Source of the DNA: Gerris lacustris | Lineage: Eukaryota > Arthropoda > Insecta > Hemiptera > Gerridae | Reading direction: 5' to 3' | DNA length: 64,000 bases | Assembly (NCBI GenBank): GCA_951217055.1 | Contig: OX578286.1 | Coordinates: 15,773,050 to 15,837,049, forward strand | Part shown: positions 2,182 to 40,885 of the stretch, piece after piece | Layout of the letters: every line of letters begins with the position of its first letter | How positions within the stretch are numbered: position 1 is the stretch's first letter | Notes under the pieces: model-generated | What the model saw: the letters and a program-made list of their open reading frames with translations, nothing else | Database searches by the model: none | What the model was told of the DNA's origin: nothing | Program-made: the position numbers and the translations under genes

Positions 2182-4265
2182 TGATTAATAAATTCAATTC
2201 CATCAGCAAAATCCGGGCCCAGCCGACAATCGGGCCGGTATAGTGTTTAACAAATTCAATTCCATTGGCAAAATCCGGGCCCAGCCGACAGTCGGGCCGG
2301 TATAGTGTTTAATAAATTTAATTCCGTCGGCAAAATCCGGGCCCAGCCGACAGCCGGGCCGGTATAGTGTTTAATAAATTTAATTCCATCGGCAAAATCC
2401 GGGCTTAGCCGACAGTCGGGCCGGTATAGTGTTTAATAAATTCAATTCCATCGGCAAAATCCGGGCCCAGCCAACAATCGGGCCGGTATAGTGTTTAACA
2501 AATTTAATTCCATCGGCAAAATCCGGGCCCAGCCGACAGTCGGGCCGGTATAGTGTTTAATAAATTTAATTCCATCGGCAAAATCCGGGCCCAGCCGACA
2601 GTCGGGCCGGTATAGTGTTTAATAAATTTAATTCCATCGGCAAAATCCGGGCCAGCCGACAGTCGGGCCGGTATAGTGTTTAATAAATTCAATTCCATCG
2701 GCAAAATCCGGGCCCAGCCAACAATCGGGCCGGTATAGTGTTTAACAAATTTAATTCCATCGGCAAAATCCGGGCCCAGCCGACAGTCGGGCCGGTATAG
2801 TGTTTAATAAATTTAATTCCATCGGCAAAATCCGGGCCAAGCCGACAGTCGGGCCGGTATAGTGTTTAACAAATTTAATTCCATCGGCAAAATCCGGGCC
2901 CAACCGACAGTCGGGCCGGTATAGTGTTTAATAAATTTAATTCCATCGGCAAAATCCGGGCCAAGCCGACAGTCGGGCCGGTATAGTGTTTAACAAATTT
3001 AATTCCATCGGCAAAATCCGGGCCCAGCCGACAGTCGGGCCGGTATAGTGTTTAACAAATTTAATTCCATCGGCAAAATCCGGGCCAAGCCGACAGTCGG
3101 GCCGGTATAGTGTTTAACAAATTTAATTCCATCGGCAAAATCCGGGCCCAGCCGACAGTCGGGCCGGTATAGTGTTTAATAAATTTAATTCCGTCGGCAA
3201 AATCCGGGCCCAGCCGACAGCCGGGCCGGTATAGTGTTTAATAAATTTAATTCCATCGGCAAAATCCGGGCTTAGCCGACAGTCGGGCCGGTATAGTGTT
3301 TAATAAATTCAATTCCATCGGCAAAATCCGGGCCCAGCCAACAATCGGGCCGGTATAGTGTTTAACAAATTTAATTCCATCGGCAAAATCCGGGCCCAGC
3401 CGACAGTCGGGCCGGTATAGTGTTTAATAAATTTAATTCCATCGGCAAAATCCGGGCCCAGCCGACAGTCGGGCCGGTATAGTGTTTAATAAATTTAATT
3501 CCATCGGCAAAATCCGGGCCAGCCGACAGTCGGGCCGGTATAGTGTTTAATAAATTCAATTCCATCGGCAAAATCCGGGCCCAGCCAACAATCGGGCCGG
3601 TATAGTGTTTAACAAATTTAATTCCATCGGCAAAATCCGGGCCCAGCCGACAGTCGGGCCGGTATAGTGTTTAATAAATTTAATTCCATCGGCAAAATCC
3701 GGGCCAAGCCGACAGTCGGGCCGGTATAGTGTTTAACAAATTTAATTCCATCGGCAAAATCCGGGCCCAGCCGACAGTCGGGCCGGTATAGTGTTTAATA
3801 AATTTAATTCCATCGGCAAAATCCGGGCCAAGCCGACAGTCGGGCCGGTATAGTGTTTAATAAATTTAATTCCATCGGCAAAATCCGGGCCCAGCCGACA
3901 GTCGGGCCGGTATAGTGTTTAACAAATTTAATTCCATCGGCAAAATCCGGGCCAAGCCGACAGTCGGGCCGGTATAGTGTTTAACAAATTTAATTCCATC
4001 GGCAAAATCCGGGCCAAGCCGACAGTCGGGCCGGTATAGTGTTTAACAAATTTAATTCTATCGGCAAAATCCGGGCCAAGCCGACAGTCGGGCCGGTATA
4101 GTGTTTAACAAATTTAATTCCATCGGCAAAATCCGGCCCAGCCGACAGTCGGGCCGGTATAGTGTTTAATAAATTCAATTCCATCGGCAAAATCCGGGCC
4201 CAGCCGACAATCGGGCCGGTATAGTGTTGAATGAATTTAATTCTATCGGCAAATCCGGGCCGAGC
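2182..4265. repeat. 62-bp satellite array with 14-monomer higher-order repeat
   Basis: About 33 tandem copies of a 62-bp monomer containing 'attccatcggcaaaatccgg', 'cccagccgacagtcgggccg' and 'gtatagtgtttaataaattt'. Monomers carry diagnostic variants (ccgtcgg, cagccggg, gggcttagcc, ccaacaatc, a 61-bp form lacking one c). The same variant order starts at 2321 and again at 3188, an offset of 867 bp (14 monomers, one of 61 bp). The second unit departs from the first after about nine monomers. Monomers contain the self-complementary core CGGGCCCAGCC...GTCGGGCCGG, which may fold. The array is internal to the hAT-type element; its right edge is about 200 bp from that element's end. Confidence 0.93.
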
Positions 4266-7399: not shown

Positions 7400-8443
7400 T
7401 TAACCATCTCTATAAGAAGTTACTATGAAAAAAAGATCGACTTTAATGTAATAAATACTCTAATTTCATAAATGCTATATATAAGAAGTTACTAAGAGAT
7501 GTTTGATTTAAACCATCTTTATAAGAAGTTACTAAGAAATACAGTTTGACTTTAATGTGATAAATTCTCTAATTTAATAAATGCTATATATAAGAAGTTA
7601 CTATGGAATACAGTTTGACTTCAACCATCTTTATAAGAAGTTACTAAGAAATAAGTTTGACTTCAACTACCTTTATAAGAAGTTACTAAGAAATAAGTTT
7701 GACTTCAACTATCTTTATAAGAAGTTACTAAGAGATACAGTTTGACTTCAACTATCTTTATAAGAAGTTACTAAGAAATAAGTTTGACTTCAACTATCTT
7801 TATAAGAAGTTACTAAGAAATAAGTTTGACTTCAACTATCTTTATAAGAAGTTACTAAGAAATAAGTTTGACTTCAACTATCTTTATAAGAAGTTACTAA
7901 GAGATACAGTTTGACTTCAACTATCTTTATAAGAAGTTACTAAGAAATAAGTTTGACTTCAACTATCTTTATAAGAAGTTACTAAGAAATAAGTTTGACT
8001 TCAACTATCTTTATAAGAAGTTACTAAGAGATACAGTTTGACTTCAACTATCTTTATAAGAAGTTACTAAGAGATACAGTTTGACTTCAACTATCTTTAT
8101 AAGAAGTTACTAAGAAATAAGTTTGACTTCAACTATCTTTATAAGAAGTTACTAAGAGATACAGTTTGACTTCAACTATCTTTATAAGAAGTTACTAAGA
8201 GATACAGTTTGACTTCAACTATATTTATAAGAAGTTACTAAGAGATACAGTTTGACTTCAACTATCTTTATAAGAAGTTACTAAGAAATAAGTTTGACTT
8301 CAACTATCTTTATAAGAAGTTACTAAGAAATAAGTTTGACTTCAACTATCTTTATAAGAAGTTACTAAGAAATAAGTTTGACTTCAACTATCTTTATAAG
8401 AAGTTACTAAGAGATACAGTTTGACTTCAACTATCTTTATAAG
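7400..8443. repeat. 42/43-bp satellite array
   Basis: About 24 tandem units built on 'tttataagaagttactaaga'. Two alternating variants occur: a 42-bp form with 'aataagtttgacttcaac' and a 43-bp form with 'gatacagtttgacttcaac'. The first few units (7400-7630) are diverged and longer ('aatgctatatataagaag'); the remainder is nearly uniform. The array stops at 'ctttataag' (8443). A single decayed unit reappears at 9310-9345 beyond mariner-like sequence. Confidence 0.93.

Positions 8444-20529: not shown

Positions 20530-20593
<64 letters not shown>
20530..20593. repeat. (TA)n microsatellite at the left edge of the ribozyme repeats
   Basis: About 32 TA units running directly into the first base of the 309-bp repeat at 20594. 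Confidence 0.95.
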
Positions 20594-20596
<3 letters not shown>

Positions 20597-20753
20597 CAAT
20601 GTAATACCGTGTTTTTGCACACTGCAATAAGGTACACAATTTGTGTTAGTGAGAGACACCAAGGGATGTGCCACGCAAGCGTGACACATAGGAACTGTTC
20701 CAACATTAGACTATACGTCACAAAGCTGTTGGCTCGGCATTACGCCATGTCCC

Positions 20754-20796
20754 GCATCGTTTCGTCGCGTCCGACTCATCAGGGGCCCGACGATGC
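20754..20796 (-). ncRNA. Hammerhead ribozyme, minus strand copy
   Basis: Read on the minus strand: stem III GCAUCGU, cleavage-site C after GU, the six bases GGGCCC, conserved core CUGAUGA, stem II GUCG with loop GACG and CGAC, then GAA and the second stem III strand ACGAUGC. Stem III pairs over all 7 bp and stem II over all 4 bp. Every invariant core base is present. Stem I is reduced to GGGCCC with no loop. Identical in sequence to the copy at 21492-21534. Confidence 0.85.
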
Positions 20797-21182
20797 CCAC
20801 CCAACTCTGGACCTATACTAAATCAAGAAGATCAGATATAGGGCTTTACCAGAGACGAGCGTGCTCTCACACCGCCATTCTTGCTTGGCTGGCAAAACAA
20901 ATCAGCAATGTAATACCGTGTTTTTGCACACTGCAATAAGGTACACAATTTGTGTTAGTGAGAGACACCAAGGGATGTGCCACGCAAGCGTGACACATAG
21001 GAACTGTTCCAGAGACGAGCGTGCTCTCACACCGCCATTCTTGCTTGGCTGGCAAAAACACGGTATTACATTGCTGATTTGTTTTGCCAGCCAAGCAAGA
21101 ATGGCGGTGTGAGAGCACGCTCGTCTCTGGTAAAGCCCTATATCTGATCTTCTTGATTTAGTATAGGTCCAGAGTTGGGTGG

Positions 21183-21225
21183 TCATCGTCGGGCCCCTGA
21201 TGAGTCGGACGCGACGAAACGATGC
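21183..21225 (+). ncRNA. Hammerhead ribozyme, plus strand copy 1
   Basis: Same core as the other copies (CUGAUGA at 21197-21203, GAA at 21216-21218, cleavage C at 21190). One base differs: T at 21183 replaces G, losing the outermost pair of stem III and leaving 6 bp. Sits 309 bp before the next copy. Confidence 0.83.
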
Positions 21226-21491
21226 GGGACATGGCGTAATGCCGAGCCAACAGCTTTGTGACGTATAGTCTAATGTTGGAACAGTTCCTATGTGTCACGC
21301 TTGCGTGGCACATCCCTTGGTGTCTCTCACTAACACAAATTGTGTACCTTATTGCAGTGTGCAAAAACACGGTATTACATTGCTGATTTGTTTTGCCAGC
21401 CAAGCAAGAATGGCGGTGTGAGAGCACGCTCGTCTCTGGTAAAGCCCTATATCTGATCTTCTTGATTTAGTATAGGTCCAGAGTTGGGTGG

Positions 21492-21534
21492 GCATCGTCG
21501 GGCCCCTGATGAGTCGGACGCGACGAAACGATGC
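21492..21534 (+). ncRNA. Hammerhead ribozyme, plus strand copy 2
   Basis: Stem III GCAUCGU (21492-21498) pairs perfectly with ACGAUGC (21528-21534). Predicted cleavage follows C at 21499, a GUC triplet, the commonest hammerhead site. GGGCCC is 21500-21505, CUGAUGA 21506-21512, stem II 21513-21524 with a 4-base loop, GAA 21525-21527. By strand order stem III is the open stem (type III layout). Self-cleavage at this and the upstream copy would release a 309-nt RNA. Activity is inferred from the motif. Confidence 0.87.
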
Positions 21535-21649
21535 GGGACATGGCGTAATGCCGAGCCAACAGCTTTGTGACGTATAGTCTAATGTTGGAACAGTTCCTAT
21601 GTGTCACGCTTGCGTGGCACATCCCTTGGTGTCTCTCACTAACACAAAT

Positions 21650-21653
<4 letters not shown>

Positions 21654-21715
<62 letters not shown>
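21654..21715. repeat. (AT)n followed by a 30-base T run
   Basis: TA units to about 21686, then an unbroken T run to 21715. Forms the right edge of the ribozyme repeat tract; the 105-codon minus frame across it is a microsatellite artefact. Confidence 0.93.
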
Positions 21716-39201: not shown

Positions 39202-39618
39202 ATTAACAAAATACCACAAAAATCTAAAACGGAGATTTAACCGAGGTAGATCTCTGTCAAAACTACTAATGAGTTATAATCTTATTACAATTACAAGTAT
39301 TTAAGTCAGAGGCATCAAATAAAAACCAGGTACTTTTATAATTATACATTCTAGACTCAAACTACAACGACAGATTATTTAATAGAAGAAAGATCGTTTT
39401 TGAAAGGGTATCAATCGAATAGGAAAGCCGTCATCAAGTCTAGTGCCCAAGTTGGTTGAACGACAGGTACAAGATAGTCGGCATTTCTTACAAGAACCTC
39501 TGTCATGAGCCAGAAGATGGAAGTAAAGCTCTTTTAATTTAACCTGCCATGGCACTGTTAAGATACGTTCAAATTTTTATCTTGGCCTGGTGTTAGGCTC
39601 CAGAACTGTTCCATTCTA
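39202..39618. other. Unassigned DNA
   Basis: Nothing recognised. Confidence 0.45.
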
Positions 39619-39619
39619 A

Positions 39620-39840
39620 TTTTTACTTTCTCCTGTAAAGAGAAAGTATTGTAATGGCGTGAAAATTCAATTTTGAGATTTTGATGGATTTGCACGTTTT
39701 GAGGTCCCCTAAGCCCAAAAAAAGTGTTTTTTAAAAAATGTCTGTCTGACTGTCGTCTGTCGTCTGTGCAGATGCCTAGAGCCAAAAGTACTGGGCCGAT
39801 TTTGACGAAATGAGTACCGTATATCACGTTGGCAGGATCA
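39620..39840 (-). repeat. Family B fragment
   Basis: 'tgtaaagagaaagtattgta', 'attttgagattttgatgg', 'gcacgttttgaggtccccta', 'gtctgactgtcgtctgtcg', 'gtactgggccgattttgacg'. Terminal about 200 bp. The 140-codon minus frame at 39558-39980 passes through it and is not a gene. Confidence 0.8.
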
Positions 39841-40885
39841 CAGAGACCGTTGCTGACGGCTATCCCTTTAAAGTTAATTTTGTCCTTTTCGAATATAGAC
39901 ATAATTACAAACGTCTTTAAATCGTATTCATAAATAATAATTAGATCATATAATATGAAATTGACATGAAATAAAAACATTTAGTAAAATGTCATCTTAT
40001 TTAATATTAAGGGTGTAAAAATCCGCAGAATGTTTTCTTCCCAAAAAAAAAAAAAAAAAAATCTTATAAAATTATAAGAGGTGATGCTGAAAAGCTAACC
40101 GATTTTGCTTACCTGATGTAATTAGCTAATGGACAAAAGGGCTATACATTGTTAAGAGCAAAAGGAAGAGACATAAGAAGGAAATAGAATTCGTGATAAA
40201 AGTATATAAAGTTCTCAAGTTGGTGGGGGTGAGATGGAAGGACTGGTAGACGTGTAATGGGAATGAAGACATGGTACCCGTGAGAAACATGCATCCCGAC
40301 CCAAGGATTCAACAACAAGACTCTCGGTCCATGAATAAAACAAAGTAATGCCAGTGATTGGCCCATTGTCTTTCAGCAGAGGATGAGGTACCTGCTTAGC
40401 CACTCCAACTCTTTGTCATTCATGAAATGAAATCCTTATTCTCTATTCAATTGATCGTTCAATAAAAAAAAAGACCAGAGAAAAATAACGAAGTATGAAC
40501 AAGTTCATGGGAAAACGACTTACAAAATTCTACCCGCACCTGTTTGCATTTAAAGAGAGTTCTCGTTTGATCCAAAAGGCGCAGCAACAACTTGTATTGT
40601 CTTTAAGTTCAGTGTTTAACTGTCGTGTAAGTCTTTGATTAAGGACATGACTTAACTTAAACCCTTCAGGATCTCAATAAAAACATAATGGTATTACTGC
40701 TTCTGAAGATATTATAATGCTGCACTACGACCGCAATTTGCAGTGAAATGTTTTAGAAGTAACATTACTTTTACAAAGAATAATATTACACATTAAAAAA
40801 TAGAAACAGGCTTTTATAAAACATGGGCTAAGAAGGAGAAAATATTTGTTTTTAACAGTTACAGTATCACAAGGGATCACTGTAA
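39841..40885. other. Unassigned DNA
   Basis: Overlapping minus frames at 40142-40403 (62-74 codons) are unrecognised. An A18 run lies at about 40044-40061. Confidence 0.4.

What the first reader, a model, noticed from the sequence alone, without database searches (positions are those of the whole stretch)
20594..21654. 309-bp repeats encoding hammerhead ribozymes
Seen: near-identical 309-bp units with three copies of a full hammerhead core (CUGAUGA, 4-bp stem II, GAA, 7-bp stem III, GUC cleavage triplet), one on the minus and two on the plus strand, spaced exactly one unit apart on the plus strand. Known: tandem repeats of about 300 bp with hammerheads are found in newt, schistosome and cave-cricket satellites and in animal retrozymes, where cleavage yields circular RNAs. 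Inference: this is a young member of such a system in this genome, with a unit-length 309-nt RNA product.
Basis: partly seen in the sequence, partly recalled or inferred. Interest (0 to 1): 0.92.

Follow-up and report, generated by a model that had tools for sequence, protein, structure and literature searches.

The report
Ribozyme repeats copied from RNA circles
A family of small non-coding repeats, with 2,871 matches to an intact hammerhead ribozyme core in this genome, shows the two-ended insertion scars of Penelope-type retrotransposons, and likely spreads by cutting its own RNA into small circles that such an enzyme would copy round and round into broken DNA.

Summary
Window 20592-21655 is one insertion of a 309-bp unit carrying a hammerhead: three cores, E 1.4e-7 to 6.4e-7, 6 to 8 bits under Rfam's cut-off. 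The genome holds 2,871 matches to the core; the reversed pattern none. Helix I is a GGGCCC palindrome that cannot close on itself; in tandem RNA it is predicted to pair between neighbouring units, in a monomer circle it cannot. That would cut multimers and spare circles.

Insertions are head-to-head, and the two outer ends fall on two fixed positions 41 nt apart, one per arm: 25 against 1, 8 against 0, and 22 against 1 in three partly overlapping samples. GIY-YIG (Penelope-like) elements of the same genome do the same in 4 of 4 insertions read at both ends, and published work shows a Penelope enzyme starting at two adjacent sites (PMC11167929). Private variants recur in every unit of both arms of several loci, as expected from one RNA circle.

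So: a retrozyme of new build, very probably moved by Penelope machinery. Untested: cleavage, the circle itself, and which element helps.

The parts
20531..20593 (.). left flanking (TA)n microsatellite, probable target
20592..21011 (-). minus arm, first stretch: unit positions u87 through u309 to u197; outer end u197 at the left flank (20592-20593 shared with the TA repeat)
21009..21057 (-). minus arm, second stretch: u201-u249; joined to the first stretch across an internal deletion that removed the hammerhead, 3-bp overlap
21052..21655 (+). plus arm: u171 through two joints to u156, 1.95 units; outer end u156 at the right flank
21191..21499 (+). one full 309-bp unit, numbered u1-u309 from the predicted cleavage site
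20754..20796 (-). hammerhead core; predicted cleavage between 20789 and 20788 on the minus strand
21183..21225 (+). hammerhead core; predicted cleavage after 21190; outer stem III pair broken by G302T
21492..21534 (+). hammerhead core; predicted cleavage after 21499
21191..21196 (+). GGGCCC palindrome (u1-u6), loopless helix I, predicted to pair with the same six bases of the next unit
21331..21346 (+). u141-u156, predicted ACACA...UGUGU hairpin ending at the first inferred reverse-transcription start site
21347..21387 (+). u157-u197, the 41-nt 'tail' between the two inferred start sites
21654..21686 (.). right flanking (TA)n microsatellite

Best explanation
The repeat carries hammerhead cores and shows the two-ended, head-to-head insertion pattern of Penelope-like retrotransposons, and it is likely a non-autonomous retrozyme whose tandem transcripts would cut themselves into 309-nt units that would be ligated into circles and copied by a Penelope-type reverse transcriptase. 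Shown: the core sequences, the copy number, the fixed outer ends u156 and u197 used once each in nearly every insertion with both ends on a site, repeats of 8-14 bp abutting the insert at 8 of 28 clusters without a TA flank, the same one-short-one-tailed rule in a GIY-YIG element family of the same genome, and private variants shared by all units of both arms at several loci. Inferred: helix I forms between neighbouring units, so multimers are cut and the closed circle is spared; a Penelope protein, probably a dimer, cuts AT-rich DNA on both strands, and each DNA end primes one cDNA on the same RNA circle, one at u156 and one at u197; the two cDNAs run round the circle a variable distance and are joined in the middle. 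Untested: cleavage, ligation, the circle, and the identity of the helper.
For: Ends: head-to-head clusters with both outer ends on a site are opposite 25 of 26 in the 40-place sample and 8 of 8 in the separately chosen 35-hit sample; from coordinates alone 22 of 23 (partly the same loci). Helper signature: GIY-YIG hits within 10 kb of each other are '-+' 16, '--' 3, '++' 1, '+-' 0 (149 of the 150 rows, themselves the best of 1,680 candidates); in one such family, PLE-A, 4 of 4 insertions read at both ends have one arm with and one without a tail of about 33-38 nt. Published: a PLE protein cuts both strands of AT-rich DNA and starts cDNA at two adjacent internal sites bounding the tail (PMC11167929); PLE inserts have inverted pLTRs, a 31-bp tail optionally on one of them, 8-10 bp duplications (PMC3846280, passages). 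Circle: private variants with at least 2 covering units sit in all units (8) or one unit (53), in between 1; where both arms cover the site, 6 in all units of both arms, 31 in one unit, 0 between; the window alone has G at u36, in 3 of 3 units of both arms, 39 of 39 other loci have A; unit spacing differs between loci (301 to 314) and is constant within 4 of 4 loci that offer two or more spacings in the listed rows. 61 of 77 aligned segments cross the cleavage joint. Mini-inserts: in 3 of 4 read, the u197 cDNA stopped at u159-u160, just before the other start site.
Against: No RNA data and no cleavage assay. No hammerhead hit at the gathering score. No loop I, hence no loop I-loop II contact, so cleavage could be slow. 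Folding is not one-sided: for the family's usual A36 unit the minimum-energy fold of unit plus 6 to 60 nt has helix I but not helices II and III (ensemble 0.79-0.82 and 0.65-0.74), and in a full two-unit RNA helix I between units falls to 0.23 (window unit) or 0.13 (A36), because other pairings compete. The helper is not identified: PLE-A's 3' flank gave no real similarity to the repeat and its tail looks unlike the repeat's by eye; its RT domain was not tested. One insertion has the same site at both ends in each of two samples (L101; C1:94019339). In the older sample 19 of 27 two-arm clusters have an end elsewhere, and 7 of 33 in the young sample. Of variants seen at 2 or more loci, 15 are in all units but 13 only in some. 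A few loci have one unit of another length (L069, L072). A homogeneous multimer could mimic a circle. Inner ends near the cleavage site are slightly in excess in one sample (9 of 66, about 3 expected; 3 of 54 in the other), so some templates may have been linear.
Confidence: 0.8

Rival explanations
1. Linear multimers, not circles: uncut tandem transcripts of a homogeneous array are the template, with the same Penelope-type priming; the ribozyme is incidental.
For: Aligned segments of up to 5.7 units run across the joint; in the anole PLE, ribozyme mutants still insert in vitro (PMC11167929).
Against: Arrays gain single-unit mutations (34 of 40 private variants with 3 or more covering units); a multimer template would pass these on as partial patterns, seen once of 40. 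Unit length differs between loci but not within the 4 loci testable.
Confidence: 0.15
2. Ordinary satellite DNA: tandem repeats grown by unequal crossing-over or replication slippage, with a hammerhead by descent only.
For: Tandem units, near identity.
Against: Dispersed loci on C1-C11, fixed outer ends, head-to-head arms, repeats of 8-14 bp abutting the insert at 8 of 28 clusters without a TA flank.
Confidence: 0.02
3. Self-primed hairpin transposition (a cDNA folding back on itself), as once proposed for Penelope, rather than two primings.
For: Inner junctions overlap by 6-7 bp at 5 of 28 loci; PMC3846280 proposed self-priming to explain head-to-head palindromes.
Against: A fold-back would not by itself place one arm at u156 and the other at u197, and inner junctions also show gaps up to 31 bp.
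Confidence: 0.08
4. Helped by a LINE or other non-LTR enzyme rather than a Penelope-like one.
For: Other reverse transcriptases are present (RVT_1 in L035); L1 twin priming also inverts (recalled).
Against: Two internal start sites with one tail per insertion are described for Penelope-like elements (PMC11167929, PMC3846280) and seen here in the GIY-YIG family PLE-A; no poly-A stands out at the outer ends, by eye, though the (TA)n flanks could hide a simple tail.
Confidence: 0.07

Closest known systems
Animal non-LTR retrozymes (Cervera and de la Pena 2020, PMC7229834, passages)
   Same: Tandem units of about 300 bp with a hammerhead, no coding capacity found, many dispersed copies, target duplications longer than 4 bp, proposed circle template and Penelope helper.
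   Different: Contiguous hammerhead order is type III with a loopless palindromic helix I, not type I; here the insertion scars bear on the helper directly, which the passages I saw offer as a strong candidate.
Penelope-like elements (PMC3846280 passages, PMC11167929 main text)
   Same: Head-to-head arms, two RT start sites about 30-40 nt apart giving a tail on one arm, AT-rich targets, target duplications near 10 bp, a hammerhead upstream of the start sites.
   Different: No reverse transcriptase or endonuclease gene; unit of 309 bp only; different hammerhead build.
Plant LTR retrozymes (PMC4918200, listing and start of abstract; described in PMC7761336 passages)
   Same: Type III order of the hammerhead, 4-bp helix II with 4-nt loop.
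   Different: No LTRs of ~350 bp, unit 309 not ~700 bp, apparent target duplications 8-14 bp not 4, helix I loopless.
Newt and PLE dimeric hammerheads (PMC6155905, PMC7761336 passages; Lunse et al. 2017, recalled, not held)
   Same: Activity expected mainly from two tandem copies.
   Different: Those lengthen or lack helix III; this one shares helix I.
Type III hammerheads of toad and termite HDV-like RNAs and of dipteran genomes (PMC7936874 passages)
   Same: Type III order in animals.
   Different: Those have long helices I and II with a pseudoknot; here helix I is six bases with no loop.

Membership tests
Animal non-LTR retrozyme (as defined in PMC7229834) | tandem repeats of 150-450 bp each with a hammerhead | tested here: met
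   309-bp units, 40 loci of 1.0 to 10.3 units
Animal non-LTR retrozyme (as defined in PMC7229834) | type I hammerhead | tested here: not met
   contiguous motif opens at helix III (RF00008 order) with helix I loopless; only across two units would the open helix be I. The genome search with RF00163 did not complete
Animal non-LTR retrozyme (as defined in PMC7229834) | GC under 50% | tested here: met
   49.2%; the paper also says under 45% in one place
Animal non-LTR retrozyme (as defined in PMC7229834) | target duplications longer than 4 bp when present | tested here: met
   repeats of 8-14 bp abut the insert at 8 of 28 clusters without a TA flank; up to 4 bases at each end may be element or target; no shuffled control was run
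Animal non-LTR retrozyme (as defined in PMC7229834) | accumulates as circular RNA | not testable with these tools
   no RNA data; only the indirect unit-homogeneity test
Plant LTR retrozyme | 4-bp target duplication and LTRs of about 350 bp | tested here: not met
   longest abutting repeats 8-14 bp; whole unit 309 bp
Penelope-like element | encodes telomerase-like RT and GIY-YIG endonuclease | tested here: not met
   only short stop-to-stop frames over the element, none longer than 130 aa; 309-bp unit
Penelope-like element | head-to-head arms with a tail of about 30-40 nt on one of them | tested here: met
   41-nt tail; 25 of 26, 8 of 8, 22 of 23 with both ends on a site
Hammerhead RF00008 | score at or above the gathering cut-off | tested here: not met
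   42.6 and 40.2 against 48.5 bits
Hammerhead RF00008 | conserved core CUGAUGA, helix II, GAAA, helix III, GUC | tested here: met
Hammerhead RF00008 | cleaves itself | not testable with these tools
   needs transcription in vitro

The most novel reading that the evidence does not exclude
Each insertion is the record of a single RNA circle read by two reverse transcriptases at once: a Penelope-type dimer holds both ends of a DNA break on two start sites 41 nt apart in one 309-nt circle, and rolls two cDNAs round the same circle, so a tandem, head-to-head array is born in one event. The hammerhead, split across a palindromic helix I that needs two units, is the switch that cuts multimers but leaves the circle whole.
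Probability: 0.6. Interest if true: 0.88.

Novelty: new variant of a known kind. Interest (0 to 1): 0.78.

Why it matters
Which enzyme moves animal retrozymes, and whether the circle is the template, were open in what I saw: PMC7229834 names Penelope-like elements as a strong candidate. Here the genome itself bears on both: a start-site pair that marks the Penelope mechanism, and unit-wide private variants that fit a one-circle template. It also reads the optional 'tail' of Penelope elements as one of two start sites, each used by one arm. It makes the whole cycle testable with one 309-nt RNA and one purified protein.

Tried and rejected
Satellite by unequal crossing-over: disfavoured by fixed ends at dispersed loci. 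miRNA-like Rfam matches (mir-3119, MIR156 and others): the strongest fall on the head-to-head palindrome at about 21008-21131 and all are below their cut-offs; read as a by-product of the inverted junction. Coding: none found; the longest frame over the element is 130 aa and crosses the head-to-head junction. Exact core in viral contigs: 0. A helper by sequence: L105, the 3' flank of a PLE-A copy, gave only a 14-base match at E 5.4 to the unit. Conservation: the majority base of 50 old segments differs from the window unit at 16 positions, none in u1-u35 or u286-u309, but 40 of these 50 come from loci picked for a good hammerhead score, so this is weak evidence. Host: the organism was not identified; Pfam on two window frames gave nothing. 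Papers: no held paper has Penelope, head-to-head and hammerhead together, or Penelope, hammerhead, circular RNA and target-primed reverse transcription since 2021; twin priming with Penelope gives 3 listings that I did not open.

Full report
What is there. Window 20592-21655 is one insertion between two (TA)n stretches (20531-20593 and 21654-21686). I number the 309-bp unit from the predicted cleavage site (u1 = 21191). The left arm is on the minus strand: it ends at the left flank on u197, holds one full core, and has lost the next core by an internal deletion between u249 and u87. The right arm is on the plus strand, 1.95 units, and ends at the right flank on u156. The arms meet head to head at 21052-21057.

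The ribozyme. Each core reads GCAUC-GUC / GGGCCC / CUGAUGA / GUCG-GACG-CGAC / GAAA / CGAUGC; the first plus copy has U for the first G. Rfam's Hammerhead_3 model finds the three at E 1.4e-7 to 6.4e-7, yet under its gathering score (42.6, 42.6, 40.2 against 48.5 bits). Helix I is GGGCCC with no loop, and loop II is four bases shorter than the model's. Six self-complementary bases cannot fold on themselves, but in a tandem transcript u1-u6 of one unit can pair with u1-u6 of the next while helix III closes the whole unit. ViennaRNA, for the window's unit plus 6 to 60 nt of the next: helix I 0.94-0.99, II 0.92-0.94, III 0.89-0.92, all three in the minimum-energy fold. For the family's usual A36 unit: 0.85-0.99, 0.79-0.82, 0.65-0.74, but the minimum-energy fold lacks II and III. 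In a full two-unit RNA helix I falls to 0.23 and 0.13 as other pairings compete. So the fold is plausible as the joint is transcribed, not certain in a finished dimer. In a circular monomer helix I cannot form. The motif is type III in contiguous order but would work between two units; it predicts that multimers cut and circles do not. Newt and viroid dimeric hammerheads do this through a lengthened helix III (PMC6155905 passages). Of the 100 cores that one search listed, 88 keep GGGCCC exactly (counted by eye, noted). Cleavage itself is not shown.

Copy number. GTC-N6-CTGATGAGTC-N6-GACGAAAC occurs 1,416 + 1,455 = 2,871 times in the 937-Mb assembly; the reversed control 0. A search with 284 bp of the unit scored 40 of 1,535 candidates and gave 143 rows, nearly all 97-100% identical, on C1 to C11. 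The family is young and dispersed, with older copies at about 79-94%.

Ends. I fetched the 39 other places and the 35 places. In the first sample 33 clusters are head-to-head; both outer ends lie within 5 bp of u156 or u197 in 26, and they are opposite in 25 and the same in 1 (binomial p 4e-7); 7 have an end elsewhere; besides these, 10 clusters have one arm, 1 is irregular, and 3 were dropped as old or short. In the second sample 27 are head-to-head, 8 opposite, 0 same, 19 with an end elsewhere. From coordinates alone, exact u156 and u197 ends running into (TA)n number 259 and 413 genome-wide, controls 0 and 0. Pairing the listed ones on C1 and on C2 to 104.99 Mb within 4 kb gives 22 opposite and 1 same among facing pairs, p 1.8e-6, and 4 other pairs; some loci are in more than one sample. 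Of 81 clusters with enough flank, 53 have a (TA)n flank; of the other 28, eight have a repeat of 8-14 bp abutting the insert, allowing up to 4 bases at each end to be element or target.

The smallest inserts are telling. Four of the facing pairs lie 42-59 bp apart. Read out, they are a u197 cDNA of 32-39 nt joined to a u156 cDNA of 14-16 nt. In 3 of 4 the u197 cDNA ends at u159-u160, just short of the second start site, and in all four the u156 cDNA ends at u141-u143, the foot of the ACACA hairpin. That is what two enzymes on one RNA would leave if both stalled at once; this is inference.

The same scar in Penelope-like elements here. GIY-YIG domains are common in this genome: 150 rows, the best of 1,680 candidates, many in long open frames, eight of 845-900 aa. 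I read them as Penelope-like from the domain, the frames and the layout; the RT domain was not tested. Neighbours within 10 kb are '-+' 16, '--' 3, '++' 1, '+-' 0. For one family, PLE-A, a search with its 3' end (40 of 1,622 candidates scored) gave 16 two-arm insertions by eye: 13 have one end at query position 793 and one at 785-791, 3 have 793 and a larger value, none has 793 at both outer ends; at C1:97.92 Mb the two inner copies both read 793, which I take as inside a tandem. I read both ends of four: in 4 of 4 one arm is short and the other carries a tail of about 33-38 nt, with a repeated target of about 7-12 bp by eye. PMC3846280 (passages) describes this anatomy, a 31-bp tail optionally on one of the inverted pLTRs. 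PMC11167929 (main text read) shows that a purified PLE protein cuts both strands of AT-rich DNA and starts cDNA at two adjacent internal sites that bound the tail; it saw no difference in start site between the strands. PLE-A's tail does not resemble the repeat's, so PLE-A is not shown to be the helper.

One unit sequence per insertion. In the 40 loci, 62 variants private to a locus have two or more covering units: 8 are in all units, 53 in one, 1 in between. Where both arms cover the position: 6 in all units of both arms, 31 in one unit, 0 in between. The window itself has G at u36 in 3 of 3 units across both arms, while all 39 other loci have A. Unit length also varies by locus (301, 302, 307, 308, 309, 314 among eight loci in the listed rows) and is constant in the 4 of 4 loci with two or more spacings, two of them in both arms; single units of other length do occur (L069, L072). 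So loci look copied from one unit sequence, with single-unit changes added later. Against this: of variants shared by two or more loci, 13 of 28 with enough cover are partial; several are at L077, L078 and L101, where older copies are mixed in, which I did not resolve. A transcript of a perfectly homogeneous array could look the same, but arrays pick up single-unit changes, and a multimer would pass these on as partial patterns, seen once in 40 private variants with three or more units.

How it likely works. Tandem copies are transcribed; neighbouring units form hammerheads and cut; units are ligated into circles that no longer cut. A Penelope-type protein binds the hairpin region about u141-u205, cuts AT-rich DNA on both strands, and each 3' end starts a cDNA, one at u156 and one at u197, on the same circle. 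Each runs from a dozen bases to 5.7 turns; the two cDNAs are joined; fill-in leaves the short duplication. Shown are the end pair, the arms, some duplications and the one-unit source; the rest is inferred.

What is new. Retrozymes are known, and Penelope-like elements have been named as a strong candidate helper (PMC7229834, passages) on which retrozymes may rely (PMC8969392, passages). The word 'inverted' does not occur in the main text of PMC7229834, and the held library showed no paper joining these features (listings only). The loopless shared helix I, the start-site pair in a retrozyme and the one-circle evidence are, as far as these searches go, new. I do not file it as a type I retrozyme, since that feature failed.

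Limits. Counts are from the best 40 candidates only. The RF00163 genome search did not complete.

Noticed in passing
window 2185-4265: 33.6 copies of a 62-bp tandem repeat, 95% matches, whose unit holds GGGCCC; a 63-bp array with a similar stretch lies at 1905-2157.
   Followed up: no
window 7589-8443: 20 copies of a 42-bp tandem repeat, 96% matches, also read as 85- and 127-bp periods.
   Followed up: no
window 39558-39980 (-): 140-aa open frame with a stretch that looks to me like a serine carboxypeptidase exon (recalled); Pfam gives no hit.
   Followed up: partly
L113-L116 (C2:43669765-43669880, C2:67366450-67366570, C1:68038875-68039000, C1:143789155-143789285): Tiny double-ended inserts of about 50 bp: a u197 cDNA stopping near u159 in 3 of 4, joined to a u156 cDNA of 14-16 nt; look like aborted double priming.
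   Followed up: yes
G000 C1:64738304/64743193, C3:73935283/73938061, C5:26242704/26243869 and others: GIY-YIG (Penelope-like) hits in head-to-head pairs; 16 of 20 neighbour pairs within 10 kb are '-+'.
   Followed up: partly
L094: A279G, in all its units, turns the antisense stop of the unit into a sense codon, giving antisense frames of 311 and 267 aa; other loci have units not divisible by three, so this looks like coincidence.
   Followed up: partly
L077, L078, L083 and L101: Some segments carry bases of the older subfamily (A82G, G249A, a deletion near 251-253, A279G) beside young ones; nested insertion or conversion, not resolved.
   Followed up: partly
L009 1-864 (-), L035 3-947 (-): Copia-type gag (Retrotran_gag_2) and a reverse transcriptase fragment (RVT_1) beside repeat copies.
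   Followed up: no
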